IMG/VR virus record: IMGVR_UViG_3300034236_000061
Location: 1-47,568 of that record
DNA: 47,568 nt
From: a virus
Strand: one strand, 5' to 3'
The position numbers were made by a program, and so were the translations under genes. Position 1 is the first letter of the stretch; every line of letters starts with the position of its first letter. The notes beneath the pieces are model-generated. The model worked only from the letters and a program-made list of their open reading frames with translations, ran no database searches and was not told the origin of the DNA. Positions 2,838-41,988 of the stretch are shown one piece after another.

Positions 2838-2840
2838 TTA

Positions 2841-3824: not shown

Positions 3825-3830
3825 TGCTCT

Positions 3831-4232
3831 TTACTCAAGCGAGAAGCTGATGTCGCCGATGTCGAAATAAAGATTCTGCTCGTCGTCGATTTGGAGCGCG
3901 TCGTCGAGGTTTTGATAAAAATAGAGATTTCCGCCACTCGAAGCGTCGAATAAGCCGACGGCGAGAACCGGGTCCCAATCTTCCTCCGCCGGGTCGAAAT
4001 CGAAACGCACGGCGTTTTCTTTCGCGCCCGCGCTCGCTGCCGGAAAGTTCGTCAGGTTATTCGTCACCTGAAGCGGCGTATAACCCAGATTGTCCAGTTC
4101 CGTGCCCACCGCGTCGCGGTCGAGCGTCGTCGTGAAAAGCCGAATAAAAAGATTCGTCGCCGGCGTGAAATTCGTCCCGGAAACGGCTTTGTCGAGCAGC
4201 TTGTTGCGGAGGAAATTGCTGATATTTAACAT
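3831..4232 (-). CDS. Small tail-fibre-like structural protein
   Basis: 133 residues. It resembles a widespread group of about 130-residue phage tail fibre accessory proteins: an N-terminal LFIRLFTTTLDRDAVGTELD block, then GYTPLQVTNN, a WDPVLAVGLFDA strand pair and a C-terminal DIGDISFSLE strand. It sits 6 bases before the fibre protein at 2841-3824 and probably helps attach or assemble it. The family link is by recall of the motif order. Confidence 0.55.
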   Translation of the reverse strand: MLNISNFLRNKLLDKAVSGTNFTPATNLFIRLFTTTLDRDAVGTELDNLGYTPLQVTNNLTNFPAASAGAKENAVRFDFDPAEEDWDPVLAVGLFDASSGGNLYFYQNLDDALQIDDEQNLYFDIGDISFSLE

Positions 4233-9693: not shown

Positions 9694-9760
9694 GTGAAAA
9701 GTGATAAGTGATAAATGATAAATAGCAGGAAAAATCCCTATTCACTTATCACTTATCACT
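9694..9760. repeat. Heptanucleotide tandem repeat inside a long hairpin
   Basis: Four heptamers (GTGAAAA GTGATAA GTGATAA ATGATAA) end about 9 bases from the ATG at 9684. The downstream half, TTATCACTTATCACT at 9746-9760, is the exact complement of 9700-9714, giving a 15-bp stem that could act as a terminator or stability element in the minus-strand message. Confidence 0.65.
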
Positions 9761-9772
9761 GTTTGTTAAAGG

Positions 9773-10162
9773 TTAGATTTGCCGGGGCAGACGATACACG
9801 CGAACCGAAGCCGCGGGCGAACCGGTTGCCGCCTGGAACTGAACGTCAATCGAGCCGTCCGCTTTGACGAAGCGAGCCGATTCAAAAGGTCCAATCATTC
9901 TGCTTGCCGTCGCGCCGCCTCCGGAGGCTGCCAGAGCAACCGCCAAATCGCGCGCCGTGTGAGCGACTGCCGAAGTTCCGGCTTTCACGGTGACGGTCAG
10001 AGCTGCGTCGTCGGTGTTGACGACTTCGATGAGCAGGCGATCCGTGAGCGAGTTCGCCGGAAGATTAATCGTTCCGTTGGTATCGACGCTTTGCGCCGTC
10101 GGCAGGCTGACGGCAGCGTTCGCCGATAATTCGTTGATAGTGAGACTTACAGGATTAGCCAT
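9773..10162 (-). CDS. Probable head decoration or capsid-associated beta protein
   Basis: 129 residues from the ATG encoding MANPVSLTINELSANAAVSL; the longer upstream reading has no better start. The protein is almost entirely short Ala/Thr/Val strands with LLIEVVNTDDAALTVTVKAG and ends SVRVYRLPRQI, like small beta-sandwich decoration proteins. It follows a displaced coat-gene 3' end and its terminator, so in the ancestral layout it came directly after the coat gene. Confidence 0.5.
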   Translation of the reverse strand: MANPVSLTINELSANAAVSLPTAQSVDTNGTINLPANSLTDRLLIEVVNTDDAALTVTVKAGTSAVAHTARDLAVALAASGGGATASRMIGPFESARFVKADGSIDVQFQAATGSPAASVRVYRLPRQI

Positions 10163-10261
10163 AATTTTTAGTTCTGAATGAAAATTTAAATGTGAGGCGA
10201 GAGGAATATCGTTTTCATTAACAAAGATACGAACTCTCGCCATATGCAAATGAAAAATTCA

Positions 10262-10281
10262 GGGCGGAGAGCGTCCGCCCC
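10262..10281 (-). terminator. Hairpin after the displaced coat-gene end
   Basis: GGGCGGA and TCCGCCC flank a 5-6 base loop a few bases after the TAG of the coat-gene fragment; TGAATTTTTC follows in the minus direction. It fits a native terminator of the ancestral coat gene. Confidence 0.55.
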
Positions 10282-10286
10282 GTTAA

Positions 10287-10364
10287 CTAGCTTTTGTTAC
10301 CGGTCAAGACAGCCCAGGCGTAAGGTCTGATGAGCTTTCCGCCGTAAACGTGAAGTCCGATTGA
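10287..10364 (-). pseudogene. Displaced 3' end of a major coat protein gene
   Basis: In one frame this stretch encodes GLHVYGGKLIRPYAWA followed by VLTGNKS and TAG, identical in all 23 residues to the end of the intact coat protein at 16902. About 16 of the 23 codons differ, all synonymously (for example GGA CTT CAC GTT TAC against GGC TTG CAC GTG TAT). Similarity stops abruptly upstream and there is no start. It is the remnant of a second, diverged coat gene. Confidence 0.85.
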
Positions 10365-10468
10365 CTTGCAACAATTCCGTTTTTGGATTTTCAAAGGTGA
10401 TTTGGAGACGTTATTTCGCATCCATTTAGAATTTATCAGAAATAAAATTAGCGGTAAGGTATGCCGAT

Positions 10469-10732
10469 TTAATGAACGATTTGCCGTTTATCCGTGACTT
10501 GGTTCGGCGGCGTTTCTTCGGATTGATTCAGAATCGAATTTCCGACTGCCGACAGATTTTTCACTGATTCAAAAAGCGTCATAGCGTTATTGCGGCAATA
10601 TTCGATTTGCTCTGCGCTCAAATCATTTTCGCTTTCTAGCTGATTTTTAATGATGTTTCCGACGCTCAAAAGTGCTTCGGATTCGATTAGAAGCAGAGAT
10701 AAAAAAGTCTGAGATTTCTTTTTGATTGACAT
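10469..10732 (-). CDS. Small helical protein after the tape measure gene
   Basis: 87 residues, mostly helix (FLSLLLIESEALLSVGNIIKNQL; LSAEQIEYCRNNAMTLFESVKNL). It starts 10 bases after the tape measure stop, so it is co-transcribed. No family recognised; it may be an assembly partner. Confidence 0.5.
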   Translation of the reverse strand: MSIKKKSQTFLSLLLIESEALLSVGNIIKNQLESENDLSAEQIEYCRNNAMTLFESVKNLSAVGNSILNQSEETPPNQVTDKRQIVH

Positions 10733-10742
10733 AGATTACCTG

Positions 10743-12965
10743 TTAAAAATTCGGTTCATAGTATTCTTGTGTGTGTCGCGGCGTCGGCGTTTTGACCGAG
10801 CGAGACCGCACGTCCGCTTTGCCGTTCGATTCGTCGATAATTCGGATGACGCCCTGCAATCCTTCTTTTTCCGCTATTTCTTTTAATTTATCCAAGCTTT
10901 CGGCGATTCGGTTTTGCAGTGCAATTTGTTTTTTACGGTCTGCGGTTGCGTCCTGCTCGTATCGCTCGATGCGGACGGCATCGCGTTCTCTGGCTGCCGC
11001 AAACTTTTCGCGCAAATCGTAAGTTAACTGGCTAGGATTTAAACCCGACGAAAGAGCGATTAATTTTTTATCATTAATCGCCTGTTCGTTTTCGCTCAAA
11101 AACCCTTTGCCCTGTATCAGTGAAATTTGTCTCTGCAAGCGGTCTTGAAGCCGCAGGTCGGAATCATCTTGTTTTTGCAGGCTTTGGATATAACTTTGCT
11201 TTTCAAAATCGGATAAATCGCCGAATGTGCGCTGGCGAACCGAAAAGCCGCCAAAGCCGCCGTCTTTATTTGAAACGCGGTCGTAAGCGTTCAGTAAATC
11301 GTTGCGCGCGTCGGATTGAGAAAAACCGTTGGTAAATAATTTATCCGAGCCGTCCGCGTTTTTGCCGTTGGCGAATATATTTGAATGGTAACGGGTGAAC
11401 GGGTCGTTTTCCGATTGTGAAAACCCCAGAAAGCCTTTGCCGTCCGGCGTGAAAGAAGCGTTAAAGTTTTTGCCGCCGCGCCCTTTTTCGATTTGCTTGA
11501 GTCCGGCTTGAATGAAATCATCAAAGAACTTAGTCGGGTCTTCGATTTTAAACTCCGGCTTTTGATAATTTCTTAAATCCTTTGCCTGTTCGCGCAAGTC
11601 GAAAACGCCTAAATTATTATCAATTCGCGCCTCGTACAATTTCAGCGCGTTTTGATTTTTTTGCATCGTTTCAAAAGTAGAAATCAAATCCGCAGACAAG
11701 CCTTTCGTATTTTCCCGCAAAGTTTTTAAGGCTTTATCGCCGTCACTGAAAATTGAAACAAGCGGATTATTCGCGCCTTGTTTTTGATAAAGATTATCTA
11801 AAACGTCAGTGTAAGTTTTACCGAGTTCTCTGACTTTCGCTTTGCCTTTTTCGATTGATTCATTCTGTTGCTTTAGCCGTCTCTGCTCTGCTTCCCTTGC
11901 ATCGTCTTGTGATTTGGCGTAGCTTTTCCAGCGATTATCAAAAGCTTCGTTCGATGCGCGAATTTTATTCTGCTGAGACGAATCAATTTGAGCGTCAAGG
12001 GTAAGAAGCTGTCGGGAAAGTTTCTCGAAATCTTCGTTCGGTTTGGAAATCACTTTACCGTTTTCTATGACCGGCAGAGTAGCGGGCGTCAGGTTTTTAA
12101 GCTGTTCCAGATTGGCGCGACGGCGCGTAAGGGCTTCAATCGAGCCAGCATCCAAAAACCGTTCAAACGTGCGTAGTTCGGCGGCTTCCTCGCGCATTTT
12201 TTGCAGATTTTTTAATCCTTCTTTCTGCGATAAGATTTGATTATTGATTGCGCCTTGAATTTGAAATTCAACCTGTAAACGGCGTTCGGCTTCATTGCGA
12301 ATGTTTTCCGTCACTTTGACGATTCCGTATCCGGCGACGGCAACCGCGCCGAAAATGCCGAGCGAAGTCATCGAGAGAGCGTTGACGGCAAGCATCCCTC
12401 TACTAACGGCATTATAAGCGCGGTTTAAACCTTCCGGCGCGAAATCGTCGGTTAATTCCAAAGTGGTCGCTTGAAAGTCCGTAATACGCCCGCGCTTTCC
12501 GCTTTTGCCGGAAATACCTTTTGCGGTTGATGAATTAGCCGAAGGCAGTGCGCTTAGTTTTCTGTTTAAATTATCGGCTTCTTTTTCGGCGGCGCGGAGT
12601 TCGTCGGTCAAAAAAGCGATTGACGATTTTCGATTCGGGTTAAGTAACTCTTTTCTGATATTGGAAATATCATTTTGAAGCTGTCGCGCCCGTTCGGAAG
12701 TCCTGACTATCTCTCTCGTTAAGCCGCCGACATTTCCAGCGTCGAGGCGAGTAGCGGTAATCTGTTGAAACTGCTTCCGCGTTTCGGCAGCTTTTTTTTC
12801 GAGCCTGTCCAAATCAATAAAATTCTCGTTCGGGATTTTGAATTTTATGTTCGGCTGTATTTTTTCGGCATCGCGGGCAAAGTCCTGCAAACGCTGTTTA
12901 TTTTTGCCGATAACAACTTCGGCTTTATCATCTAAAAAAACCAATTCGACGGTAAGAACATCCAT
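10743..12965 (-). CDS. Tape-measure-like tail protein
   Basis: 740 residues from the ATG encoding MDVLTVELVFLDDKAEVVIG. The frame opens 15 codons earlier, but that ATG lies inside a terminator loop. Long charged coiled coil (about 25-150), then a glycine/alanine hydrophobic stretch (about 190-215, LGIFGAVAVAGYGIV), then further coiled coil (NQILSQKEGLKNLQKMREEAAELRTFERFL) to the end. This pattern and size suit a short tape measure that sets tail length and contacts the membrane at injection. It lies just after the coat gene instead of after the frameshifting chaperone; no other candidate exists in the window. Confidence 0.65.
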   Translation of the reverse strand: MDVLTVELVFLDDKAEVVIGKNKQRLQDFARDAEKIQPNIKFKIPNENFIDLDRLEKKAAETRKQFQQITATRLDAGNVGGLTREIVRTSERARQLQNDISNIRKELLNPNRKSSIAFLTDELRAAEKEADNLNRKLSALPSANSSTAKGISGKSGKRGRITDFQATTLELTDDFAPEGLNRAYNAVSRGMLAVNALSMTSLGIFGAVAVAGYGIVKVTENIRNEAERRLQVEFQIQGAINNQILSQKEGLKNLQKMREEAAELRTFERFLDAGSIEALTRRRANLEQLKNLTPATLPVIENGKVISKPNEDFEKLSRQLLTLDAQIDSSQQNKIRASNEAFDNRWKSYAKSQDDAREAEQRRLKQQNESIEKGKAKVRELGKTYTDVLDNLYQKQGANNPLVSIFSDGDKALKTLRENTKGLSADLISTFETMQKNQNALKLYEARIDNNLGVFDLREQAKDLRNYQKPEFKIEDPTKFFDDFIQAGLKQIEKGRGGKNFNASFTPDGKGFLGFSQSENDPFTRYHSNIFANGKNADGSDKLFTNGFSQSDARNDLLNAYDRVSNKDGGFGGFSVRQRTFGDLSDFEKQSYIQSLQKQDDSDLRLQDRLQRQISLIQGKGFLSENEQAINDKKLIALSSGLNPSQLTYDLREKFAAARERDAVRIERYEQDATADRKKQIALQNRIAESLDKLKEIAEKEGLQGVIRIIDESNGKADVRSRSVKTPTPRHTQEYYEPNF

Positions 12966-13060: not shown

Positions 13061-13849
13061 CTAAATTTCGATGTATTCCAGATACGAGCCAGCCAGAATA
13101 TTCGTCTGGTCGGCGCTGGAAGTGCCTTGCGCGAACTGAAAAGCGAACGTGCCGCCACCCGCGCCGCAACGAACCGTTATTTTATATTCAATAAATCCGA
13201 GCGGGCTGGCGCTTAAACTTTGATTCGTCGGCAAGGTGGAAAAATCGGCAATCGTCGTCGCGCTGGACGGCGCGAAGTTCGCCGCGCCGGTTCTCTGCTC
13301 GCCGCAGACTAAAGTAACGGCTGGCGCGGCGAGTCCGAATTTTATATTCGGCGTTGCGCTCGCCGTGTAGATGAACGCTAAAAGACGAATGACGTAAGTT
13401 TTATTAGCCGCTATCGGAAAATGCAATTCAGCGTCATTTGATAAAACCGTGTTGCTTACTCGCTGTTCGTCAGCCGTTTTCTTAACGGTCGTCCACGCGC
13501 CCGCGCCGCCAGCCGTTTCGCCGTCGTCAACTGAAAGATTGAGCGTAATAGGGCTGGAAATACTGCCGCTGACGAGATTCAAAAGAATTTCGTCGCCTTT
13601 GGTAAGTTCAACGTCCAAGCCAGTGATTGAGCCTATGCGCGAACCGGCATTAACCGTCACGCCCGCGCCCGCGATTTCCACGCCGTTTAAATGCAAATTA
13701 AAAATCGCGTTCGCGCCCGAAACGCTTTCATCGGTCATTACGTCAACCGCTTTGAGAGTTCCGTTTTTTAAGATTGGTAAGTAAATAACGCCGCTTTTCG
13801 CGCCGCTAAGATTTCTGCCTTCGTAAAGTTTGGTAAGTTCGTTAATCAT
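13061..13849 (-). CDS. Fibre-like protein sharing its N-domain with the distal fibre
   Basis: 262 residues. Residues 1-114 match those of 2841-3824 at about 70 percent with no gaps. The C-terminal ~145 residues are unrelated: an Ala/Thr-rich beta domain (NKTYVIRLLAFIYTASATPNIKFGL; YKITVRCGAGGGTFAFQFAQGTSS). The shared N-domain probably anchors both proteins to the particle. Strong hairpins flank the gene on both sides, so it may be a separately expressed cassette. Confidence 0.6.
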   Translation of the reverse strand: MINELTKLYEGRNLSGAKSGVIYLPILKNGTLKAVDVMTDESVSGANAIFNLHLNGVEIAGAGVTVNAGSRIGSITGLDVELTKGDEILLNLVSGSISSPITLNLSVDDGETAGGAGAWTTVKKTADEQRVSNTVLSNDAELHFPIAANKTYVIRLLAFIYTASATPNIKFGLAAPAVTLVCGEQRTGAANFAPSSATTIADFSTLPTNQSLSASPLGFIEYKITVRCGAGGGTFAFQFAQGTSSADQTNILAGSYLEYIEI

Positions 13850-14252: not shown

Positions 14253-14927
14253 TTATTGAACGCTTGCCCTGCGCTTTCCGTTTTTTATCCTTGAAACCAA
14301 ACTTTCACGAACATTAAAATCGGTCGCTATTTTTCTTCCTGTTTCGCCGTTTTGCAATCGCCGTTTAATTTCCCTCACTTGGTTGTCGGTTAATTTGGCT
14401 TGGTGATTTTTTTCGCCAGTTTGGGCTAATGCCTTATTTTTACGATGTTCTTCGGATTGTTTTCTGCCTTTTAGCTTTTCCCCGTTTTCCGACATTCTAG
14501 CCGAAAACTCAGGCGTTACTTTTCTGTTTTTCCAGATATTGGCGCGATGTTCTGCGGATTTTTTCCTGCCTTTCAATCCAGCCGAAACTTTAGCTTTTTG
14601 TTCGTCGGAAAAACGATAACCCAAAATGCTTTTCGCGGTCGGGCTTAAATTGTAGCCGATATTTTTTTGAAAGCAGTTTGTCTTATCGAGCCAGAACTGC
14701 TCGCGCTCAATTAATAAATCAATATCGGAAACGTATTCTAAAATCTGAAAGCCAAAAGCCGCCGCGCCGTATTTATTCCACGCGGCTTGCAGAAACTTAT
14801 TATTGTGAATTTGTTTGTTTAACTGCCTTTTATGTTCGGTAAAACGGCGCGTTAAATAGACCGCCGAGCCGATGTATAACTTGCCGCTTTTAGTATTTAA
14901 AATTTGATATATTCCAGACTTTTCCAT
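14253..14927 (-). CDS. GIY-YIG homing endonuclease with NUMOD3 and HTH
   Basis: 224 residues. The catalytic domain opens with GIY at 5-7 and YIG at 18-20, with Arg27/28 and the EH pair at 31-32. Two NUMOD3-type DNA-binding repeats follow (GYRFSDEQKAKVSAGLKGRK and a later GRKQSEEHRKNKA). A C-terminal helix-turn-helix (LTDNQVREIKRRLQNGETGR, NVRESLVSRIKNGKR) completes the usual free-standing homing endonuclease layout. Such enzymes cut one specific site and spread their own DNA by repair. Base composition here is more AT-rich than in the tail genes. Confidence 0.9.
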   Translation of the reverse strand: MEKSGIYQILNTKSGKLYIGSAVYLTRRFTEHKRQLNKQIHNNKFLQAAWNKYGAAAFGFQILEYVSDIDLLIEREQFWLDKTNCFQKNIGYNLSPTAKSILGYRFSDEQKAKVSAGLKGRKKSAEHRANIWKNRKVTPEFSARMSENGEKLKGRKQSEEHRKNKALAQTGEKNHQAKLTDNQVREIKRRLQNGETGRKIATDFNVRESLVSRIKNGKRRASVQ

Positions 14928-16901: not shown

Positions 16902-17750
16902 CTACGATTTGTTGCCTGTCAGGACTGCCCAAGCATACGGACGGATTAATTTACCCCCATACACGTGCAAGCCTTTTATAGCGTCCGCGAAACGAGCTTC
17001 AGGGCGATAAGCTTCGATTTTGACGATTTGCTCCGCGAAGGTATAAGCCATCGGGTGACCCGCGATGATTTTGTATTTCGTCGCGGAGGTGTGCGGCGTG
17101 TTGTTGGAAACGTAAATATCCATTCCCGCAGCGCGTCCGATTTTGCCGTTACGAATTACATTGTCCGACGTGCTGGTTCCCGCCGCGACGAAACGGTCGT
17201 CTTTGAGCAGCAAGCCTTCGCACCACGCCGGGATGATGGCAAAACGCCCTTCCTCCGGCACATTGGCTTCAGTTAATTTGACTTTCAAATCAACCAGGTA
17301 ATCATAAAGATTGTCTTTCGTCAGCACGATGGGCGTCGTGTCGTCGCCGATCAGATTCGACACCGGCACGAGAACGTGATTCGCGGCGATGAAAATATCG
17401 GACTTGTCGCGCAGACCGTAGCCGGCGCGGTTCATTGCTTCCGCCATCACGTTGGCGTTCGCCTGGACTTTATCAACGTCGTCAACGGCAAAATTGAAAT
17501 ATTTGCCTTCGGTGATGTTGAGCATCTGCCCGGCGTCGTCTAATTCGTCCGGTCCGTCGATGTTACTGTTTTTGGTGTAATCCTTAATAGTGATGTCGCC
17601 GACCGAATTGATTTTGACCGAATCGCCTTTGTCGCGGATTTCGCCTTCGTACTCGCGGTTGCAAACGGCAGGGCTGCCGAAGATGTGGAATTTTTCGAGC
17701 GCTTTCAAGATTTTGACGCTCCAAACGGTAGGAATGAAATTGTTAATCAT
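16902..17750 (-). CDS. Major coat protein, P22 gp5-like HK97 fold
   Basis: 282 residues. MINNFIPTVWSVKILKALEK, then GDSVKINSVGDITIKDYTKN, AMNRAGYGLRDKSD and PMAYTFAEQIVKIEAYRPE are typical of the P22-type coat group. It follows the scaffold gene, and a terminator ends it. Its last 23 residues are duplicated with other codons at 10287-10364. The 3' end here uses AT-richer codons (GGT AAA TTA) than the displaced copy. Confidence 0.85.
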   Translation of the reverse strand: MINNFIPTVWSVKILKALEKFHIFGSPAVCNREYEGEIRDKGDSVKINSVGDITIKDYTKNSNIDGPDELDDAGQMLNITEGKYFNFAVDDVDKVQANANVMAEAMNRAGYGLRDKSDIFIAANHVLVPVSNLIGDDTTPIVLTKDNLYDYLVDLKVKLTEANVPEEGRFAIIPAWCEGLLLKDDRFVAAGTSTSDNVIRNGKIGRAAGMDIYVSNNTPHTSATKYKIIAGHPMAYTFAEQIVKIEAYRPEARFADAIKGLHVYGGKLIRPYAWAVLTGNKS

Positions 17751-17819: not shown

Positions 17820-18467
17820 TTACTTCTGCGAAGCGAGGAATTTATCAATCGCTTCCATATTGTCGGCGACTTCCTTGGACGACATTTTCTGGATTTTCTC
17901 CATCGTCAATCCGCCCGCGTTGGTGTTATTGCCTTCGCCGGCGTCCGCCGAGCCTTCAGGCTTTTTCACTTCGGCAAAAAGCTCCGGCGATTCTGTTTTT
18001 GCAGTTTCCAGAACTTCTTTAAGATTGGTGATTTTGCCTTTGTCGTCGGTTTCGAGTTCCGACTTATAAGCGTTATAAAAAAGTTTCGGGTTTTTCACGC
18101 CGGCTTTTTCGGCGGCTTCGACGACCGTATCGCGCGTGTCGCGTTCGCGCAGCGCGGCGCGAGTTTCGGCGAGTTCGGCTTTCGTCCGCTCGTCGTCAGA
18201 TAGCTTTGCCTTCGCTTCGGCGTCGGCGGCTTTTTTCTCTGCCGCGCGCCGTTCGTTGGCTAACATTCTGTTGACTTCGTCCTGCGTGAAAGTTTTTGGC
18301 TGTGAGCCGCCTTCGGTTTGTGAGTTATTCGCGCCGGTCGAAGTCCCCGCCGCGCTCGATTGCTGTTGACCTTCGTTTTGATTATCGTTTGCGCCGGTCG
18401 AAGTTCCCGCCGCTTGTTGTCCCTGGGCGTTATCGCCCCCAGTTGCGTTTGAGTTTTCTTGTGGCAT
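17820..18467 (-). CDS. Capsid scaffold protein
   Basis: 215 residues, acidic and Gln/Asn/Gly-rich at the N-terminus, with a duplicated AAGTSTGAN motif, then FTQDEVNRMLANERRAAEKK and a long coiled coil, then a charged C-terminal helix (MEKIQKMSSKEVADNMEAID). This is the pattern of DUF4355-type scaffolds encoded directly ahead of coat genes. AAGGAAACT before the ATG is a good ribosome site. Confidence 0.75.
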   Translation of the reverse strand: MPQENSNATGGDNAQGQQAAGTSTGANDNQNEGQQQSSAAGTSTGANNSQTEGGSQPKTFTQDEVNRMLANERRAAEKKAADAEAKAKLSDDERTKAELAETRAALRERDTRDTVVEAAEKAGVKNPKLFYNAYKSELETDDKGKITNLKEVLETAKTESPELFAEVKKPEGSADAGEGNNTNAGGLTMEKIQKMSSKEVADNMEAIDKFLASQK

Positions 18468-18597
18468 AGTTTCCTTAAAAAATAAGGTGAGGAAGTGAGG
18501 CTACCTAAATGCAGGCTTAAAACGCCTGCCAGAAAGTATTTAATCAGAAAAAAAACAAGCGGTCGGTGTGCGCGTTTTTGTGCTAAGTTTGTGGCGT

Positions 18598-18909
18598 ATG
18601 ACTCAAATAGTTTTTATTCACGATTTAGTTAATCAACAGACGGGAAAGACCTTTAAAGAGGAAAAGCTCGAAATAAATCACAGCATACCGCTAGGCAGCC
18701 TAGTAGAAGTAAATCATCAGGACGAGGAAGACGATGATGTCGGAGTCCGGCTTTATGTCGTCGGTCACGTTAGGGATTGCGACGGAACGCCGCTTTACAG
18801 GTTAGGAATGAAAGGCGCGCCGCTTCGTGATGATTGGCAACAGGAAGGATTTTATAGCAGAAAAACTTTCGGAAATTACGGCGAAGACAGTCTAACCGTA
18901 ATTAAATAA
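18598..18909 (+). CDS. Opposite-strand small protein of the accessory block
   Basis: 103 residues from the ATG encoding MTQIVFIHDLVNQQTGKTF; a longer GTG reading is less likely. Beta-rich and acidic (LVEVNHQDEEDDDVGVRLYVV), ending in a GFYSRKTFGNYGED segment. AT-rich relative to neighbours. The next gene starts 1 base after its stop. Not recognised. Confidence 0.55.
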   Translation: MTQIVFIHDLVNQQTGKTFKEEKLEINHSIPLGSLVEVNHQDEEDDDVGVRLYVVGHVRDCDGTPLYRLGMKGAPLRDDWQQEGFYSRKTFGNYGEDSLTVIK

Positions 18910-18910
18910 T

Positions 18911-19171
18911 ATGATTATCACTAAAGACGCGGAATGGATTTATAAAACTTTAGCCGAAGCTTTTACCAAAGAAACGGGCAAAGAGTGGCAATCTTACTCG
19001 CGAATTCAATTAAAACACTCGATACCGGAATTAAACGAGACTGAGAAGACTCAATATGGAAAAGCTTGGCTTGAAATTTCTTACATCGAGTTTGAAATAG
19101 AAGATGCTGAAAATTCCGCCAGTTTTCAACTTTCCTATTCAACTAAAAATCCGCCCGTCCCGGAGGATTAG
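18911..19171 (+). CDS. Opposite-strand small protein, partner of the preceding gene
   Basis: 86 residues, acidic (WLEISYIEFEIEDAENSASF). Coupled to the gene before it and followed by its own terminator, so the pair is an independent unit inside the structural operon. Not recognised. Confidence 0.55.
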   Translation: MIITKDAEWIYKTLAEAFTKETGKEWQSYSRIQLKHSIPELNETEKTQYGKAWLEISYIEFEIEDAENSASFQLSYSTKNPPVPED

Positions 19172-19222: not shown

Positions 19223-20527
19223 TTATACCGCGCCGAACTCGCACAAATATTTCAAGTTGATTTGTGACGTGTCGTAAACGATTGCCTCGTGATTCATCAC
19301 GCCGCATGTTCCGGCTTCCACCCAGGTCGAATCGAAGCCTTTGCGCGGAAAGCTTCCCGTCCGGTTTTTCGGTTCGTTCATTTTGCCGAGCGCGCATTCG
19401 GTCAAAAACATAAACGTCCGCTGATTTCTCGCGCCCGAGCCGTTCCAAAAATCCGTCGCGTAATTTAACGCTTTCGTCGATTGAACGCTCGTATAAATTC
19501 CGTCGCCGAACATTCTGCCCGTGCAGTGAGAAGCGCTGGATTTCGGAATCATCAAACCGCTTTTCAAAATGCTCAAAAGATTCGAGGCTTTCGTGCCGTG
19601 CCATAAATCGGCGCGGACGTTGCCGATTTTCGCCGCCGCCAAATCGAAATTCTGTTTCATATCTTCGATTTCGACTTCGTAAACGCGAACCAGTTTCAAA
19701 CTCGATGTGTTATGAAAACCGTTTTTCGACGATTCATACTGTTTTTTGATGCGGCGGAAAACGGCGCGTCCCTCGTCGGTCGTGTGCGGAACGATGGACA
19801 ATTTACACTTGAAGATTTTATCGCTTTTCAAGTCCGGCGAGCTGGTCGTTAAAGCCGCGTCGAGCGCGTCGAGAATCGAGCCTTGCGCGGAGATTTTATC
19901 CGCCGTGTCTAAAAGCTGGCTGCTGGGCGGAATGCGAGCGCCGAAGTCCGCCGGTACGAGGCGAAAATAATCACAAATCAATTTATGGCGCGCGCCGCTC
20001 GTTAAACCGTTTGAATTTTCGCTTTCGATGCTCGTCAGCAGCTGGCGGGCTTTGGCGACGGCTTCGGGCGTCAAGACGCCGAGCGGCGTCGAAAACGCGC
20101 CGGTTGCCGCGTTGTACTTGATGCTCGTCGAATGCGTGATTTGATGAATATTGACCTCAGCCAAATATTTGATTAAATCGGCGGTCGTCGCGCATAATGC
20201 GCCGTCGCCGAGAATTTGCTCGACGGCGAGGCGCGATAATTCCTGCGGTCGGTTGTTCGTGATAACGATTTCAGTTTCCGCGCCGCCCAGCACGGAAGTA
20301 TCTTCATAACCTTTTCTGAGCTTTTCGCCGCGTTTGCTTTCGAGATAAGCAACTGCCGCCGCCGATGAGGAAAGCTGTTTTTTACTGACGGCGAGGTTTG
20401 CGCCTTCCCGGACGCGTCCGTATTGAGCCTCGAATAATCCGTTATCGTGCGCCGAGCCGATCCAGACTTTATTTGAATTTTCGCCCGCGTCGAAGTAATT
20501 CATTTTGTATTGCTTGATAACTGTCAT
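19223..20527 (-). CDS. WGR-domain poly(ADP-ribose) polymerase (PARP) encoded by the phage
   Basis: 434 residues from the ATG with AAAGGAA upstream. A longer frame only reflects overlap with the previous gene. WGR domain at ~5-85 (W22; G37-R38 in YGRVREG). Helical regulatory-type region ~95-270, with DLIKYLAEVN and TPLGVLTPEAVAKARQLL resembling the PARP1-3 regulatory domain. ADP-ribosyltransferase domain ~275-434 with the full H-Y-E triad: H310 (LWHGTK), Y345 (FGDGIYTS), E414 (NHEAIVYD), then SQINLKYL. It should split NAD+ and add ADP-ribose, possibly chains, perhaps stimulated by DNA ends through WGR. Target unknown; no macrodomain or glycohydrolase is nearby. The setting inside the head operon suggests late expression. 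Confidence 0.93.
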   Translation of the reverse strand: MTVIKQYKMNYFDAGENSNKVWIGSAHDNGLFEAQYGRVREGANLAVSKKQLSSSAAAVAYLESKRGEKLRKGYEDTSVLGGAETEIVITNNRPQELSRLAVEQILGDGALCATTADLIKYLAEVNIHQITHSTSIKYNAATGAFSTPLGVLTPEAVAKARQLLTSIESENSNGLTSGARHKLICDYFRLVPADFGARIPPSSQLLDTADKISAQGSILDALDAALTTSSPDLKSDKIFKCKLSIVPHTTDEGRAVFRRIKKQYESSKNGFHNTSSLKLVRVYEVEIEDMKQNFDLAAAKIGNVRADLWHGTKASNLLSILKSGLMIPKSSASHCTGRMFGDGIYTSVQSTKALNYATDFWNGSGARNQRTFMFLTECALGKMNEPKNRTGSFPRKGFDSTWVEAGTCGVMNHEAIVYDTSQINLKYLCEFGAV

Positions 20528-20559
20528 ATCGAAAAATATTCCTTTCTTAAAAAAGTTAA

Positions 20560-20579
20560 GGGCGCTTCTTAAAGCGCCC
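20560..20579 (-). terminator. Hairpin ahead of the PARP gene
   Basis: GGGCGCTT / AAGCGCCC stem with a 4-base loop, followed on the minus strand by TTAACTTTTTT. It would limit read-through from the upstream Cys protein into the PARP gene. Confidence 0.65.
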
Positions 20580-20606
20580 CTGTCAGCCTGTCTATTAGTG
20601 TCCGTC

Positions 20607-20849
20607 TTAGTTGAATGCTTCGCGGTCGTGGCATTCCCTGTGACAGTTTCCGGTCTCGGAAGGCTCGCCGCACAATTCGCAAATAACTTCCAAGTAACCG
20701 GTGTGGTCAATTTTAAAATCTGAAAACCAGTCGATTTCGGTTTCGTCCGCGTCTTCAAAGTAAGCCGCCATTTGCGCTTCGGCTTCGGCGTCCGCGTCCT
20801 GCAGCATTTCGCAAATTTCTTCGTGATAATAGGATTTCGTTAAGCTCAT
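20607..20849 (-). CDS. Small acidic Cys-motif protein of the PARP cluster
   Basis: 80 residues from the ATG behind GGAG. Acidic helical N-terminus (EEICEMLQDADAEAEAQMAAYF) and a C-terminal CELCGEPSETGNCHREC motif (C-x2-C-x8-C-x3-C), suited to one zinc ion. It lies between the SWIM and PARP genes and is likely a partner. Not recognised. Confidence 0.6.
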   Translation of the reverse strand: MSLTKSYYHEEICEMLQDADAEAEAQMAAYFEDADETEIDWFSDFKIDHTGYLEVICELCGEPSETGNCHRECHDREAFN

Positions 20850-20888: not shown

Positions 20889-21410
20889 TTACGCGTTCAC
20901 CACAACCTGAATCGTGCCGAAGCACGTTTCCTGCAAAGCTTCGGCGATATGTTTGCAGATGTGTTTGCGAAAGGTGAAATCCTTGCAATCGCATCTCGCA
21001 TTAACTTTACCTTCGGAAGTTTCCAGCCTGACGCGGTATTCCGTGCCTTTGGTGCGATTGACGACATCAAACAAGTCGCGCGCGCCGCCCGGATAAACTT
21101 CAATATTGTCTTCCAGACCGCGCCGCAGAGCTTGTTTAAATTCGGCTTTCCGTGAGCTGAGGCAAATCAAGCCAGCCGGTTCGTTGCGCGGCTGGAGCTG
21201 GACGTGATAAGCGACGAGCGCCGATTGACGGATTGCCGAGCGGCTCACTTCGCCGTCAGGATAAGCGCAATAATAAGCCGGCTCGCCGTCGCGGGTCGTC
21301 AGCTCAACGACCGTCAAATAAATCACTTTGTCGTTGTCGTCGATGTCCTGAGCCTGAATGGTGAAGCCGATTTTGTCGCCGATGTTTAAGAAGATGTTTG
21401 CGTTTGTCAT
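20889..21410 (-). CDS. SWIM zinc-finger protein
   Basis: 173 residues from the ATG behind GGAG. A beta-rich N-terminal half (IGDKIGFTIQAQDIDDNDKV; CAYPDGEVSRSAIRQSALVA) precedes a C-terminal SWIM motif, CDCKDFTFRKHICKHI (CxC-x9-CxH, residues ~143-157). SWIM fingers bind DNA or protein. In a three-gene minus-strand unit with the PARP gene. Divergent HTH gene and promoter upstream. Confidence 0.85.
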   Translation of the reverse strand: MTNANIFLNIGDKIGFTIQAQDIDDNDKVIYLTVVELTTRDGEPAYYCAYPDGEVSRSAIRQSALVAYHVQLQPRNEPAGLICLSSRKAEFKQALRRGLEDNIEVYPGGARDLFDVVNRTKGTEYRVRLETSEGKVNARCDCKDFTFRKHICKHIAEALQETCFGTIQVVVNA

Positions 21411-21439
21411 TTTGTGGTTACTCCGTTTTATTAGTGCGA

Positions 21440-21489
21440 TTGACTTATTCAATCTTTAATAAGTCTAACATCATTGCTATACTAAGTCA
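21440..21489. promoter_or_regulatory. Divergent promoter and operator of the PARP cluster
   Basis: Minus strand: TTGACT (21489-21484), 17-base spacer, TAGACT/TATTAA near 21467-21460. GACTTATT at 21442-21449 and AATAAGTC at 21458-21465 form a perfect inverted repeat over the -10 region, a plausible site for the HTH protein encoded divergently. On the + strand TATACT at 21479 could serve as a -10. Confidence 0.5.
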
Positions 21490-21556
21490 ACAAGAATATA
21501 ACAAAACTGCTAGACTTTTTCACTTTTTTTATATAAAGTTTTCTTTGGGGAAATTT

Positions 21557-21796
21557 ATGGAAGAACTCGAAGGATATTTAACCGTCAACGAAGCGGCGGA
21601 ACGGCGCGGTATCACTGGCGGTCGCATTCGTCAATTTATTTCTGAAAACCGGCTGGCTTCGATAAAAGTCGGCAATACCAGGCTAATTAAAACCGAAGAC
21701 CTCGACCGGTTGGAGATTAAAAAGAGCGGCGGGCAGAAAAAGGAAAAGGTGACGCGCTCGGCTTTGTCGAAAAGAAAAACGCGCGGCGAAAAATAA
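21557..21796 (+). CDS. Excisionase-like HTH DNA-binding protein
   Basis: 79 residues from the ATG behind TTGGGGA. GYLTVNEAAERRGITGGRIR and the following SIKVGNTRLIKTEDLDRL match the excisionase/HTH_17 (MerR-like) family. The C-terminal ~25 residues are basic. Divergent from the SWIM-PARP unit and probably its regulator. Confidence 0.75.
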   Translation: MEELEGYLTVNEAAERRGITGGRIRQFISENRLASIKVGNTRLIKTEDLDRLEIKKSGGQKKEKVTRSALSKRKTRGEK

Positions 21797-21832
21797 ACTT
21801 TCAATTGCTACTTACGATGGTGAACTCCTCTA

Positions 21833-22234
21833 ATGAGCTACGATAGCAAAACCGGACATAGTTTCTGTGAGCGCTGCGGACATTCGTGGACGGTCAGACA
21901 GAAATATAACGGCAATAATTATTATCGGAAAGAGCCGAAATCCTGCGCGAAATGTAAATCGAAAGTATGGAATCAGCCTCGCGTCTATGCCGGTAAATAT
22001 ATCAGCGGCACAATGGCGAAGCGATTCAAACCAACCGGACGCGCTGCCGCCAAGTTAAAATGTGACCCCGAACAGGCAGAGTGGGACAGTATAGCTGGCG
22101 ACGACGGTTTATCCCCAAATGAAAAAATTGACGCCATTCTCGCAACGTTGTCACCGGAAGAAAGATTGGCAGCGAAAAGACAGTTATATCTTTACCGACT
22201 CGCCGCGATGCTCGAAGAATTAGGAATCAAATAA
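21833..22234 (+). CDS. Zinc-ribbon protein with helical C-terminus
   Basis: 133 residues. CERCGHSW near 12-19 and CAKCKSKVW near 38-46 form a zinc ribbon. A linker and a helical domain follow (LSPNEKIDAILATLSPEERLAAKRQLYL), reminiscent of sigma-associated or repressor tails. Same strand as the HTH gene before it. Not recognised. Confidence 0.6.
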   Translation: MSYDSKTGHSFCERCGHSWTVRQKYNGNNYYRKEPKSCAKCKSKVWNQPRVYAGKYISGTMAKRFKPTGRAAAKLKCDPEQAEWDSIAGDDGLSPNEKIDAILATLSPEERLAAKRQLYLYRLAAMLEELGIK

Positions 22235-22283: not shown

Positions 22284-23219
22284 TTACATCTCGGATAATT
22301 CCGCCAGGCTCTTGACGAAATAGCTTTGCCCGAAATCGTCCGATTTTTTCACGCCGACGAACGATTCCAGCTTTGCACCGGCGCGAAACATTTCAAAGCG
22401 CGAATTTCCCAAAATCTGTTTTTGAAAACCCGTTTCGAGCTTTAAAAAACTTTCCGCGCCGGTGGTGATTGCTTTTTGATTTTTCCGGAACGGAACCAGC
22501 GTGCAGCGGCAATTCGGATGCGAGAAAACCTTCACGCTCGTTTTAAACTTTTGTCCGTGCAAAAACCAGCAGGTCAGGCACGTGCGCGGGTCTAAAACGC
22601 TCATCCAGACGTATTCCCGAATCTCTGCTTCGCGGTAAAAATCACGGCTCGCCGCGCGGTAAGCTTCGTTGGTTTCCGTCCGCGAAAGCGTCAGAGCGCG
22701 CGTCAAACCGAAATCGGCGACAGTGTTGATCCGCCGGGCGATTGTTTGATTCGATTCGCCCAGGGCAAAGCCTTCGACCAGCTCGCGGCGCACGCGGTCT
22801 TTGAGCGGCTCTTTCATCCGGGCAAAGAATTTTCCTAAAGATTTACCGTCGTAGGTCCTTCCGATGAGTTTCTGAATCGCTTCCCGGTCAATCCGAAAGA
22901 TTTCCGCGTCCAGTTCCATTTGCAAAAATTTCTTTAAGGATTCAGGCGCGAAATTTATCACGCTTCTCTGGGCGCGCGTCACGATTTGTGAAAAAGGAAT
23001 CGCTAAGACATCGAGATGGTCTTCGAAGAGCAGCAAAATTCTTTCGAGATAATTGGCTGCGTAAAGATTCAGAAGCGTTTTCCGGTCAGTTGTCTGCGCT
23101 AAAAACAATTGAATTTCGCGCTTCATTTTCTCGAATTCAGCCAGAATCAGAACCGCCGAGCGCTTGTCGGTTCTGATTAAAAATTCGCGCTGCTCTCCGG
23201 CAAATTGTTCGGGCGTCAT
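22284..23219 (-). CDS. Phage head morphogenesis protein, SPP1 gp7 / Mu F-like
   Basis: 311 residues. The C-terminal half has the family signature: RTETNEAYRAASRDFYREA, then LDPRTCLTCWFLHGQKF and HPNCRCTLVPF, with the conserved Cys/His set that likely binds zinc. It starts immediately after the portal stop, as in SPP1-like phages, and is thought to enter the procapsid with the portal. Confidence 0.85.
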   Translation of the reverse strand: MTPEQFAGEQREFLIRTDKRSAVLILAEFEKMKREIQLFLAQTTDRKTLLNLYAANYLERILLLFEDHLDVLAIPFSQIVTRAQRSVINFAPESLKKFLQMELDAEIFRIDREAIQKLIGRTYDGKSLGKFFARMKEPLKDRVRRELVEGFALGESNQTIARRINTVADFGLTRALTLSRTETNEAYRAASRDFYREAEIREYVWMSVLDPRTCLTCWFLHGQKFKTSVKVFSHPNCRCTLVPFRKNQKAITTGAESFLKLETGFQKQILGNSRFEMFRAGAKLESFVGVKKSDDFGQSYFVKSLAELSEM

Positions 23220-24575
23220 TTATTCCTCGACCATTGAATTTCCGCCGTCGAAAAACTTCGCCGCCGCTTCGACTTTCGCTTTCTCGCGCAACGCAATTTC
23301 CGTTTTCATTTTCTCGATTTGCTCATCCGTCAAACCGTAATCGCGCTGGAGCTGCTCGTCGGACCAGCCGATTGATTTTTTCTTAATGGCGCTGTCGAGC
23401 CATTCGCCGTCGTCCTGCGGCGCGGCGTCCGTCCACTGCGTCTCGATTTCCAAGTTTTCTTTTTGCGCGTTTTGCAGTTCCATCCCGAAATCGACCACCT
23501 CGCCCCATGTCTCGCCGAACGAGCGCTGCGCGTCCTTAATAATGGCGATAAAGCGAGCCTCAAGTTTTTTCAAAGCATCGCCGGAAATGGCGTTCCCGGT
23601 CGATTCGAGATTGAAATAAGACGGCGGAATGCCCGAAACCAGACAAATCGACATAATGGCGCGCTCCAATACCAGAAGCATCTGACTCAAATCGGCGTCG
23701 GTAAACTCGCCGAATTTCGTTTCCGTATCCGAGGCGAATAAAATATCGTCGTCGGGTTTGAAGGGATTGATTTTTTTGCCGGTTTCCTCGTCGGTCTCGA
23801 CCTGCATTCCGGCGACGTAACGCCGGCGGCGCATATTTTCTTCCTGCGCGCCTAAAATGTCCGCCCACGACTTATTGAGCGCGTCGTTTAAAGGAATGAC
23901 GTCTGTCAGCAGAGAATTGCCCTGCTCGCACATTTCGGCGTCGTATTTGAAATGAAAGACCGGAACGCGCCCGAAAGTGTTCGGCAGCGGAAAGGTTTCG
24001 TCGTCGATGTGGCGCTGGTCGAAAGCCGCCGGATTCAGCGGCAGCGTTTCGTGTTTTCCGGTCGTGACGTATTTTTCAATGACGTCCGGGTAATAGAGCG
24101 TCAGGTAATAAAATCCGTCGTCGCCTTTCCACGCTTTCGCCGCTTTCGTAATCTCGCCGGTTTCCGCGTCTTTCCAAACCGTTATATTATTCGCCAGCTG
24201 CGGGTAGATTTTCACCTTGCGCTTTTTATCGACCCAGACAATCACATAGGCGTCGCCGGTTTTGAAAGCTTCGCGGTGCACGTCGCCGGCGACGAGCGGC
24301 ATTTTCGATTGCTTCCACAATTTCCACGCCGGATTTTCCGTGTTTTTCTTGTCGGCTAAAAAATTGATGATTTCCAGCCGCGACGCCGGCGCGCGAACGA
24401 CAACCTTACAAAGATTCTCGCGCAGTTTTTGCAGGCGTTTGCCGAATTTGTTTTTAAACTTTTCTGAGGCGAAATTCAGCGCGTGACGCCCGGCGTAATA
24501 GTCGTAAAACTCTTTATATTTGGATTGATTATTGCTGATTCGCGTTAATGCGGCTTTGATGTCTGATTGAGGCAT
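23220..24575 (-). CDS. Portal protein, SPP1 gp6-like
   Basis: 451 residues, the expected size. Landmarks: YYAGRHALNF near 27-36, GDAYVIVWVDKK, RVPVFHFKYD, the stem segment LSQMLLVLERAIMSICLVSGIPPSYF, then GNAISGDALKKLEARF. Forms the dodecameric gate for DNA at one capsid vertex. Heptad repeats and an imperfect ACTGTT-N5-TACAGT site lie just upstream. Confidence 0.9.
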   Translation of the reverse strand: MPQSDIKAALTRISNNQSKYKEFYDYYAGRHALNFASEKFKNKFGKRLQKLRENLCKVVVRAPASRLEIINFLADKKNTENPAWKLWKQSKMPLVAGDVHREAFKTGDAYVIVWVDKKRKVKIYPQLANNITVWKDAETGEITKAAKAWKGDDGFYYLTLYYPDVIEKYVTTGKHETLPLNPAAFDQRHIDDETFPLPNTFGRVPVFHFKYDAEMCEQGNSLLTDVIPLNDALNKSWADILGAQEENMRRRRYVAGMQVETDEETGKKINPFKPDDDILFASDTETKFGEFTDADLSQMLLVLERAIMSICLVSGIPPSYFNLESTGNAISGDALKKLEARFIAIIKDAQRSFGETWGEVVDFGMELQNAQKENLEIETQWTDAAPQDDGEWLDSAIKKKSIGWSDEQLQRDYGLTDEQIEKMKTEIALREKAKVEAAAKFFDGGNSMVEE

Positions 24576-24582
24576 AAGGCAA

Positions 24583-24634
24583 GTTGAGAGTCGAGAGTTG
24601 AGAGTTGAAAGTTGAAAACTGTTATGTTTACAGT
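24583..24634. repeat. Five heptanucleotides plus an operator-like palindrome before the portal gene
   Basis: GTTGAGA GTCGAGA GTTGAGA GTTGAAA GTTGAAA at 24583-24617, abutting ACTGTTATGTTTACAGT (24618-24634), which matches the ACTGTA-N5-TACAGT site of the replication gene with one change. The gap sits between terminase and portal genes. Confidence 0.7.
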
Positions 24635-24674
24635 TCCGTAGTTATAAGTTAGCAGTAAATCGAAAAGCGGTGAC

Positions 24675-26153
24675 TTAGAAACCGAATCCCTGCGAGCCTT
24701 CGCCGACGGTCGAGTTAAACGCGCCCGCCGCCGAGTCCATAATGTCGTCGTGCGGCAAATCCGGCTGCCCGTGCATATGCGATAAAAATTCGCCGTTCCA
24801 GCTTCCCTTTCTCAGTTTGACGTTGCCGGTTTCGGCTTGGACCGCGAGCGAGCGGGCGCGCGTCAATTTGTCGCCCTTGAAGTTTTTGCCCTTGGCGTCG
24901 TAGCCGGCGAGCTGCGTCGTCAATCGGTGAGATTCGCGTTTTGCCGCGCTTCCCGGCTCAATCTCCCAGCGAACCATAAAACGCGCTCCCAGGCGTTTTG
25001 CTTCGTCGCGGTCGAGCTTGCAGGTTTCGACGAAAAGCTTTTCGACCGAAGCCGGATTCTGCTGCACGGCGAGCACGTCGAGGATGTACCATTTCTTTTC
25101 GGCTTTGGAATAGCCTATCAGCGTACGCGCGGTGAAATCCGGGTCATTCTTGCCATCCACCTTTGTCCCTTTGATCTGCTTTTCCGTCGCGGCAAAATCC
25201 CAGTAAGCGCAAACGAGGTCGATTTTCGGAAGCGCGTCGACGACTTCAAACCATTCACGATTGAAAACCTTGCCGGCAGACGCTTTAATTTTCCAGTTTC
25301 CGCCGAGAAGCCTTTCGCGCTCGACGAGCGGCAAAGCCAGCAGGTTCGCCAGGTACTGCGGATTCGATTTTAAAAGTTTTTTATTGTCGTAAACGTTCGA
25401 CGCGATGAAAGTGACGCTTTTGATGAAATCTTCGCGCCGCGCCGTTTCGCGGATTTCTTCCGGCAGGCTCTGTCTAATCACCTGGAATTCGTCTTCCAGC
25501 TCTTCCGGAGCGTTCGCCCATTTGAGCTTGTCGCCCAGGCGAATAAACCAGCGCAGTTTGCCGGAGCGTTCGGGAATCGGCAAACCGTAGCGCGGATTAC
25601 GCGCGCCCGTGTGGGGCAGAAATTCGTTTTGGTCAATCCACCACGCGATAAACTCTGCAACCCAGCTTTCCGCGTCCGGATTCGTCGTCGCTCTGACGTA
25701 AGGCTTGACGCCGCACGTCGAGCGGTTGCGCGAAAGCATATAAAAAACCTGCTTTTCGGTGAAATGCGTCAGTTCGTCGAAGCCCAAGAAACAAATCTGC
25801 GAGCCTTGCCAGTCGAGCACGTTTTTTTCGTGCTGCAGATGCGCGAAGGAAACGACTGAGCCGGGTGGAAACGTCCAGCTGTGGTCGGTATCTTTCGGCA
25901 CGGCATCGAGCAGCGGATACATTTTGTTCGACTCGTCCCAAAGTCCGCCCTCGTTGGTAATCATCGGGCTGGTGCGCCGGAAGATAACGCCGCCGAAATC
26001 TTTGTTTCCGGTGTGGCGCGAGCCTTCGAGCAAAATGCCGAACGACTTTCCGCCGCCCGCCGCGCCGCCATAAATGGCAATGTCCGCGGGAGTCGATAAA
26101 AACATCTCCTGCGGACCCGGCTGCGGTCTAAGCTCGATGGTGTGAGGCGTCAT
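24675..26153 (-). CDS. terL: Terminase large subunit
   Basis: 492 residues. ATPase: Walker A GGAAGGGKS at 29-37, Walker B FLGFDE at 122-127, an arginine-rich FRRTSP near 58-63. Nuclease domain: YWDFAATE (first acidic residue) and the late HDDIMDSAAGAF. Packages DNA into the prohead with the small subunit, whose gene overlaps by 4 bases. Confidence 0.93.
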   Translation of the reverse strand: MTPHTIELRPQPGPQEMFLSTPADIAIYGGAAGGGKSFGILLEGSRHTGNKDFGGVIFRRTSPMITNEGGLWDESNKMYPLLDAVPKDTDHSWTFPPGSVVSFAHLQHEKNVLDWQGSQICFLGFDELTHFTEKQVFYMLSRNRSTCGVKPYVRATTNPDAESWVAEFIAWWIDQNEFLPHTGARNPRYGLPIPERSGKLRWFIRLGDKLKWANAPEELEDEFQVIRQSLPEEIRETARREDFIKSVTFIASNVYDNKKLLKSNPQYLANLLALPLVERERLLGGNWKIKASAGKVFNREWFEVVDALPKIDLVCAYWDFAATEKQIKGTKVDGKNDPDFTARTLIGYSKAEKKWYILDVLAVQQNPASVEKLFVETCKLDRDEAKRLGARFMVRWEIEPGSAAKRESHRLTTQLAGYDAKGKNFKGDKLTRARSLAVQAETGNVKLRKGSWNGEFLSHMHGQPDLPHDDIMDSAAGAFNSTVGEGSQGFGF

Positions 26154-41678: not shown

Positions 41679-41807
41679 ATGGTAATTGACAGCGAAAACT
41701 TAATCTCGGAATTCGACGTCATCGCGCTCGCGGATTTATTTTCGGCGCGGATTGAAACGGACGATGATTACAACGAGCTGGCGAAATTTTTCGACGAAGA
41801 CGAGTAA
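41679..41807 (+). CDS. 42-residue acidic peptide
   Basis: MVIDSENLISEFDVIALADL followed by FSARIETDDDYNELAKFFDE and DE. A highly acidic single helix pair, in line with the repressor-protease operon. It could bind ImmA or the repressor. Not recognised. Confidence 0.5.
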   Translation: MVIDSENLISEFDVIALADLFSARIETDDDYNELAKFFDEDE

Positions 41808-41820
41808 AGGAGAAATAAAT

Positions 41821-41988
41821 ATGTTGACTGGAGATTTACCGACCGGAGCATTTACAGGACATCTTCCGACCGGAGGCTTTTGCGGAAATATGGGCAGTAC
41901 TGTGAATATCACAGGAGACACGCCGACCGGAAACTTTTGCGGGAATATGGGCGCGACGGTTGCCGGAGAAATTCCGATCGGCGGCTGA
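41821..41988 (+). CDS. 55-residue Pro-Thr-Gly repeat peptide
   Basis: Consists of four imperfect copies of G-x-L/T/I-P-T/I-G, two with FCGNMG(S/A)TV attached (LTGDLPTGAFTGHLPTGGFC; GDTPTGNFCGNMGATVAGEI). AAAGGAG 8 bases ahead of the ATG is one of the strongest ribosome sites in the window. Only two Cys, in identical contexts. No signal peptide. No family known to me; a short repeat fibre or a modified-peptide precursor are both conceivable. Confidence 0.6.
   Translation: MLTGDLPTGAFTGHLPTGGFCGNMGSTVNITGDTPTGNFCGNMGATVAGEIPIGG

What the first reader, a model, noticed from the sequence alone, without database searches (positions are those of the whole stretch)
19223..20527. Full-architecture PARP (WGR, regulatory helices, H-Y-E catalytic domain) inside a phage head operon
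The visible order WGR, helical regulatory-like region, ART domain with H310, Y345 and E414 is that of DNA-activated eukaryotic PARP2/3-type enzymes, including the Glu needed for chain growth. Phage ADP-ribosyltransferases such as T4 Alt and ModA are of the R-S-E type, so a WGR-PARP lying between scaffold and head morphogenesis genes is unusual. It could modify host nucleic-acid proteins, counter a nick- or break-sensing defence, or be packaged in the virion. Which one is inference.
Basis: partly seen in the sequence, partly recalled or inferred. Interest (0 to 1): 0.88.

Follow-up and report, generated by a model that had tools for sequence, protein, structure and literature searches.

The report
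Prophage carrying a PARP-like enzyme
A virus integrated in an Acidobacteriota bacterium carries a complete relative of the human DNA-break sensors PARP1-3 as a swappable cargo gene among its head genes; such phage PARPs were already known from other phages, but nobody appears to have shown what any of them does.

Summary
The minus-strand gene at 19223-20527 (ATG at 20527, 434 aa) is a real PARP: catalytic domain E 4.6e-25, end-to-end profile match to human PARP1 WGR-HD-ART at 1.8e-47, a confident AlphaFold model whose best PDB matches are PARP1 and PARP2 on DNA breaks, and H310-Y345-E414 in all 38 aligned sequences. WGR and regulatory domains are below Pfam cut-offs in this protein alone but clear in its relatives. 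The gene lies between Mu-F-like and scaffold/capsid genes of a Blastocatellia (Acidobacteriota) prophage. It is not a conserved head gene: the nearest sister prophage keeps flanking genes but lacks PARP, and only 1 of 162 class genomes has one. It is cargo in a variable slot. Phage PARPs of this family are already reported (PMC4245714, PMC7824862; PHROG 23333), and I found 34 more viral contigs, mostly large phages. Best mechanism: a DNA-end- or nick-activated ADP-ribosyltransferase; DNA activation, chain length and biological role are inferred. Verdict: new member of a known kind, in an unusual carrier and location.

The parts
19223..20527 (-). WGR-HD-ART PARP, 434 aa (ATG at 20527)
20297..20503 (-). 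WGR domain (aa 9-77), motif Y36-G37-R38; N19, K20, G37, R38, K69, Y74 near-invariant in relatives
   Evidence: Pfam E 0.0045 here, 32/38 aligned sequences at E<=0.001
19859..20185 (-). PARP regulatory helical domain (aa 115-223); long helices in the model; L219-D220-x-L222 conserved
19232..19813 (-). ART catalytic domain (about aa 239-432)
   Evidence: PF00644 4.6e-25
19598..19600 (-). catalytic His310
   Evidence: invariant 38/38; aligns with the WHG motif of PARP1
19493..19495 (-). catalytic Tyr345
   Evidence: invariant 38/38
19286..19288 (-). catalytic Glu414
   Evidence: invariant 38/38; aligns with NEYIVYD of PARP1
20558..20581 (-). terminator-like hairpin between s80 and the PARP (10-bp stem, then AACTTTTTT)
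   Evidence: terminator-like hits in the region as a whole are not above chance
20607..20849 (-). small acidic protein s80 (80 aa), kept in the sister prophage G067 without PARP
20889..21452 (-). SWIM zinc-finger protein, kept in the sister prophage G067 without PARP
   Evidence: PF04434 1e-7
21398..22234 (+). opposite-strand cargo: HTH protein and small zinc-finger-like protein, atypical codon use
18568..19171 (+). two opposite-strand small ORFs downstream of the PARP, low GC or atypical codon use, no family
22284..23219 (-). Mu-F-like minor head protein, upstream border of the cargo slot
   Evidence: PF04233 2.7e-13
17820..18467 (-). head scaffolding protein, downstream border of the cargo slot
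   Evidence: PF06810 2.2e-9
16902..17750 (-). major capsid protein
   Evidence: PF25209 6.3e-10, phrog_267 5e-71
23220..26153 (-). portal (SPP1 gp6-like) and large terminase

Best explanation
The gene encodes a complete clade-1 (PARP1/2/3-type) ADP-ribosyltransferase carried as a cargo ('moron') gene in a variable slot between the Mu-F-like and scaffold genes of a temperate phage of a Blastocatellia host. Most likely mechanism: the WGR domain binds a DNA end or nick, the helical domain stops blocking the NAD+ site, and the H-Y-E transferase attaches ADP-ribose (one unit or a chain) to itself and to proteins at the break. Most likely benefit (inferred, about 0.45): during infection it acts on proteins at broken or nicked phage or host DNA, such as nucleases, repair proteins or polymerase, to the advantage of the phage. 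Shown here: architecture, fold, triad, carrier and slot. Inferred: DNA activation, chain growth, targets and benefit.
For: PARP catalytic E 4.6e-25; profile of 38 sequences matches PARP1 WGR-CAT over positions 8-426 at E 1.8e-47 and PARP2 at 3.1e-47; model pLDDT 85, pTM 0.81; best folds are PARP1 on a DNA break (4opx, 4dqy; E about 2e-25, TM 0.68-0.69) and PARP2/HPF1 bridging a break (6x0l); triad 38/38, and WGR N19/K20/G37/R38/Y74 and helical-domain L219/D220 near-invariant. Carrier: capsid relatives in 43 of 162 Blastocatellia genomes, PARP in 1 of 162. Slot: the sister prophage G067 has Mu-F, SWIM, s80, scaffold and capsid in order but no PARP, and a DNA methylase instead; IMG/VR contigs with 92-95% identical portal/terminase and 90% identical capsid carry yet other genes on the two sides of the slot. 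Composition and codon use of the PARP match the late genes. The PARP of Herpetosiphon with the same triad is DNA-activated and makes long chains (stated in PMC4245714).
Against: No enzyme assay of any phage member was found. WGR and PARP_reg fall below Pfam cut-offs in this protein alone. The stretch G381 to N412 is 31 residues against about 60 in PARP1, so acceptor use may differ. No macrodomain or ARH-type ADP-ribose eraser was found in the window. The benefit to the phage has no direct support, and the role argument leans on other phages in which the gene has different neighbours.
Confidence: 0.72

Rival explanations
1. Prophage-borne defence: when another phage or a nuclease breaks DNA in the lysogen, the PARP is over-activated, drains NAD+ and stops the cell (abortive infection or superinfection exclusion).
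For: It sits in a variable cargo slot of a temperate phage next to other swapped genes; a terminator-like hairpin separates it from the upstream gene, as in independently expressed morons; NAD+ depletion is a common antiphage output (own knowledge).
Against: No PADLOC defence family hit. Most relatives lie in large phages and in megaplasmids, where suicide would not help a phage. No lysogenic promoter shown.
Confidence: 0.2
2. Virion-packaged transferase injected with the DNA, in the manner of T4 Alt.
For: Located among head genes on the same strand with late-gene-like codon use.
Against: The location is not kept in relatives; neighbours of other phage PARPs are ligases, homing endonucleases and metabolism genes, with one head-protease hit among 115 neighbours in the families listed. 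The sister prophage lacks it, so it is not a required head component.
Confidence: 0.1
3. It is only a mono-ADP-ribosyltransferase, like PARP3 or PARP4, and makes no chains.
For: H-Y-E is also present in the mono-transferases PARP3 and PARP4 (own knowledge), which match the profile; shortened stretch before Glu414.
Against: Nearest matches by score are PARP1 and PARP2, both polymerases; tankyrases, also polymerases, have only about 11 residues more than the profile in this region.
Confidence: 0.3
4. Host DNA joined to the phage by assembly error.
For: The closest relative (60% over aa 116-433) is a chromosomal gene of a Chloracidobacterium MAG.
Against: The PARP is 79 bp from s80, which with SWIM also stands in the same slot of an independent prophage assembly; the flanks of the chromosomal copy are unrelated; composition matches phage late genes; PARPs occur in many other phages.
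Confidence: 0.04

Closest known systems
PARPs of Klebsiella phages 05F01, FBKp34 and KP13-16, Xanthomonas phage XacN1 and Stenotrophomonas phage RAS14 (PHROG 23333)
   Same: Full-length WGR-HD-ART, 31-36% identity, same triad; FBKp34 is annotated with all three domains
   Different: Large phages of 137-385 kb; gene near nrdD, GMP reductase or small ORFs, not among head genes
Cellulophaga phage phi4:1 PARP (listed in PMC4245714)
   Same: Annotated phage PARP with H-Y-E
   Different: 27% identity, shorter; two genes away from a DNA ligase
Chloracidobacterium sp. UBA7659 PARP
   Same: Sister in the tree (support 100), 60% identical over aa 116-433
   Different: Chromosomal context, beside an Smr/MutS2-like gene
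Megaplasmid WGR-PARPs (Pseudomonas, Variovorax, Vibrio)
   Same: Full length, 31-37% identity
   Different: On plasmids of about 0.8-1.2 Mb; one stands beside an RNA 2'-phosphotransferase gene
Human PARP1/2/3, Herpetosiphon and C. difficile CD160 PARP
   Same: WGR-HD-ART order, H-Y-E triad, fold (PMC5966428, PMC4245714)
   Different: No zinc fingers or BRCT as in PARP1; Y-G-R rather than W-G-R; shorter stretch before the catalytic Glu

Membership tests
Clade-1 (DNA-dependent) PARP | ART domain with H-Y-E triad | tested here: met
   PF00644 4.6e-25; H310/Y345/E414 38/38
Clade-1 (DNA-dependent) PARP | Helical regulatory domain N-terminal to the ART | tested here: met
   PARP_reg 2.8e-5, just below cut-off here, 27/38 at E<=0.001; helices in the model; profile spans the PARP1 helical domain
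Clade-1 (DNA-dependent) PARP | WGR domain | tested here: met
   E 0.0045 alone (below cut-off), 32/38 at E<=0.001; profile alignment to PARP1 and PARP2 starts in the WGR; whole-length fold match to WGR-CAT chains
Clade-1 (DNA-dependent) PARP | Activation by DNA ends or nicks | not testable with these tools
   needs an assay
Clade-1 (DNA-dependent) PARP | Synthesis of poly(ADP-ribose) chains | not testable with these tools
   Glu414 present but not sufficient
Phage PARP family PHROG 23333 | Whole-length profile match | tested here: met
   3e-43, residues 14-431 on positions 14-382 of 383
T4 Alt/ModA-type R-S-E ART | R-S-E triad | tested here: not met
   H-Y-E; best matches are PARPs
Conserved phage head-operon gene | Kept in the same place in related phages | tested here: not met
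   absent from the sister prophage slot and from 161 of 162 class genomes
Known antiphage defence system | PADLOC-DB family match | tested here: not met
   no match at E<=0.01 for the PARP or for its same-strand neighbours SWIM and s80

The most novel reading that the evidence does not exclude
A temperate phage uses a break-activated PARP as a swappable cargo gene that senses DNA damage in the lysogen and either stops the cell by draining NAD+ or neutralises break-processing enzymes; this would be the first demonstrated PARP-based sensor in a phage-host conflict.
Probability: 0.2. Interest if true: 0.75.

Novelty: new member of a known kind. Interest (0 to 1): 0.42.

Why it matters
The role of bacterial and phage PARPs has been open since they were first listed. 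Here one sits in a small temperate phage, in a slot where sister prophages give natural with/without pairs, so gain and loss can be compared. The survey also found relatives on 34 IMG/VR contigs and 17 phage records at the thresholds used, many of them full-length WGR-HD-ART proteins, so a DNA-break-responsive ADP-ribosylation step may be a recurring phage function that ordinary enzyme assays can test.

Tried and rejected
A single-sequence scan of viral contigs found no close relative; alignment A1 was too diverse to scan. Co-occurrence with ADP-ribose erasers looked striking: among PARP-bearing records of at least 280 kb, macrodomain 15/18 and ARH 9/18. Twelve control jumbo phages, none of them a PARP hit, gave macrodomain 8/12 and ARH 2/12, so I do not claim a link. 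SWIM and s80 as obligate partners of PARP: rejected, since they stand without PARP in G067 and SWIM/s80 have no match beside the cultured-phage and plasmid PARPs tested. PARP as a recent foreign gene by composition: rejected. Terminator-like hits as a class are not above chance in the region (15 found, 15.4 expected); only the single 10-bp hairpin is noted. Ligases as neighbours (RNA ligase 3+2 and DNA ligase 2 of 115 neighbours by Pfam; DNA ligase near the phi4:1 PARP) are suggestive but come partly from one related lineage (L034, L035, L036, L039, L042). Tree placement beyond the sister pair is weakly supported and includes no eukaryotic sequences.

Full report
Observation. The finding gives 19223-20527; the plus strand there has stops and the gene is on the minus strand, ATG at 20527, 434 aa, preceded by AAGAAAGG about 13 nt upstream. 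Pfam gives PARP catalytic 4.6e-25, PARP_reg 2.8e-5 and WGR 0.0045; the last two are below their curated cut-offs. Relatives remove that weakness: of 38 aligned sequences 38, 32 and 27 match PARP, WGR and PARP_reg one by one at E<=0.001, and their profile aligns from position 8 to 426 with human PARP1 WGR-CAT (1.8e-47) and with PARP2 (3.1e-47). H310, Y345 and E414 are in all 38 and in all nine of the cultured and large-phage set. The AlphaFold model (pLDDT 85, pTM 0.81) has a WGR-like sheet, five long helices and the ART fold; the PDB search puts PARP1 and PARP2 on DNA breaks first, and the viral library lists a phage NAD(+) ADP-ribosyltransferase among its top hits.

Carrier. The window is an IMG/VR record. 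Terminase, portal, Mu-F, scaffold and capsid are recognisable, an integrase fragment lies at 42337-42567 and FG-GAP-like and RelA/SpoT genes follow, so I read it as an integrated prophage. The capsid has relatives in 43 of 162 genomes of the class of Chloracidobacterium UBA7659 (Blastocatellia), best 80%, which fixes the host class with fair confidence.

Slot. PARP is found in 1 of those 162 genomes. In the closest prophage, G067, the order Mu-F, SWIM, s80, scaffold, capsid is kept but the PARP is missing, a short ORF takes its place, and a DNA methylase with an HTH gene stands on the other strand. Two IMG/VR contigs with 92-95% identical portal/terminase (L094) and 90% identical capsid (L095) show other genes after Mu-F and before the scaffold, among them an endonuclease-like gene. 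The region is therefore a cargo slot, and the PARP one of its contents. Its GC (0.516) and codon use (0.705) match the late genes, unlike the opposite-strand cargo around it (0.49-0.60).

Family. tblastn finds 17 phage records (seven with at least 80% coverage, 31-35% identity in the best) and 23 plasmid records. A conserved-block scan finds 34 viral contigs, many of 100-476 kb, and 15 contigs among 84,980 bacterial and archaeal species genomes. The window protein pairs with the chromosomal UBA7659 protein (support 100) within this mostly viral and megaplasmid set. Neighbours elsewhere are ligases, nucleotide metabolism genes and homing endonucleases, with one head-protease hit among 115 neighbours in the families listed.

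Literature. PMC4245714 (2014) lists phage PARPs (Aeh1, phi4:1) and states that Herpetosiphon PARP is DNA-activated and makes long chains; PMC5966428 reports that bacterial PARPs mostly carry Y-G-R, as here, and often lack a Pfam PARP_reg hit although the helical domain is modelled; PMC7824862 names the XacN1 protein and suggests transfer of ADP-ribose chains to host proteins; PMC9503650 counts PART/PARP among the most frequent viral ARTs. No functional study of a phage PARP was found; most subscription papers and preprints are not held.

Mechanism. Established for relatives, inferred here: WGR engagement of a DNA end relieves helical-domain autoinhibition and the triad transfers ADP-ribose. 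The conserved WGR and helical-domain residues support retention of this switch, because a constitutive enzyme would not need them. Chain growth is undecided. The role is the weakest step; I favour action at broken or nicked DNA to the phage's advantage (about 0.45), over prophage-borne defence (0.2) and virion packaging (0.1). An apparent link with ADP-ribose erasers did not survive a control set of jumbo phages.

Verdict. Real and correctly described at the protein level; not new as a kind; the carrier (a small temperate phage) and the cargo slot among head genes are the unusual parts.

Noticed in passing
window 2841-3824 and 13061-13849 (-): Two proteins 9 kb apart share a 118-aa N-terminal domain at 72% identity with different C-termini, as in exchangeable tail-fibre or decoration modules.
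   Followed up: partly
window 41752-41988 (+): 78-aa ORF with repeated PTG.F..GNMG-like units, after an XRE regulator and an ImmA/IrrE-like HEAAH protein; a repetitive peptide gene of unknown purpose.
   Followed up: no
window 42613, 44991, 45039, 45653: Four dispersed copies of a roughly 31-nt sequence like GTGTCCCATAAACGCCCCTTTTCGAGACA in the putative host flank; possibly a host repeat element.
   Followed up: no
L107 (G097 prophage) 9741-11942: The Mu-F head protein appears, by eye, to contain an intein (insert starting CLTAGTIVCSPET and ending VTHNC).
   Followed up: no
L108 (G091 prophage) 2755-4140: Mu-F head protein carries an extra C-terminal region resembling a C39-like papain-fold peptidase, by eye.
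   Followed up: no
L010 4364-4957: A megaplasmid PARP is followed by an RNA 2'-phosphotransferase gene (an ADP-ribose-handling enzyme); upstream is a 200-aa protein kept beside the PARP in three Pseudomonas megaplasmids.
   Followed up: partly
window 14253-14927 (-): GIY-YIG homing-endonuclease-like gene of low GC in the late region; relatives also lie near PARPs on viral contigs L016, L017 and L044.
   Followed up: no
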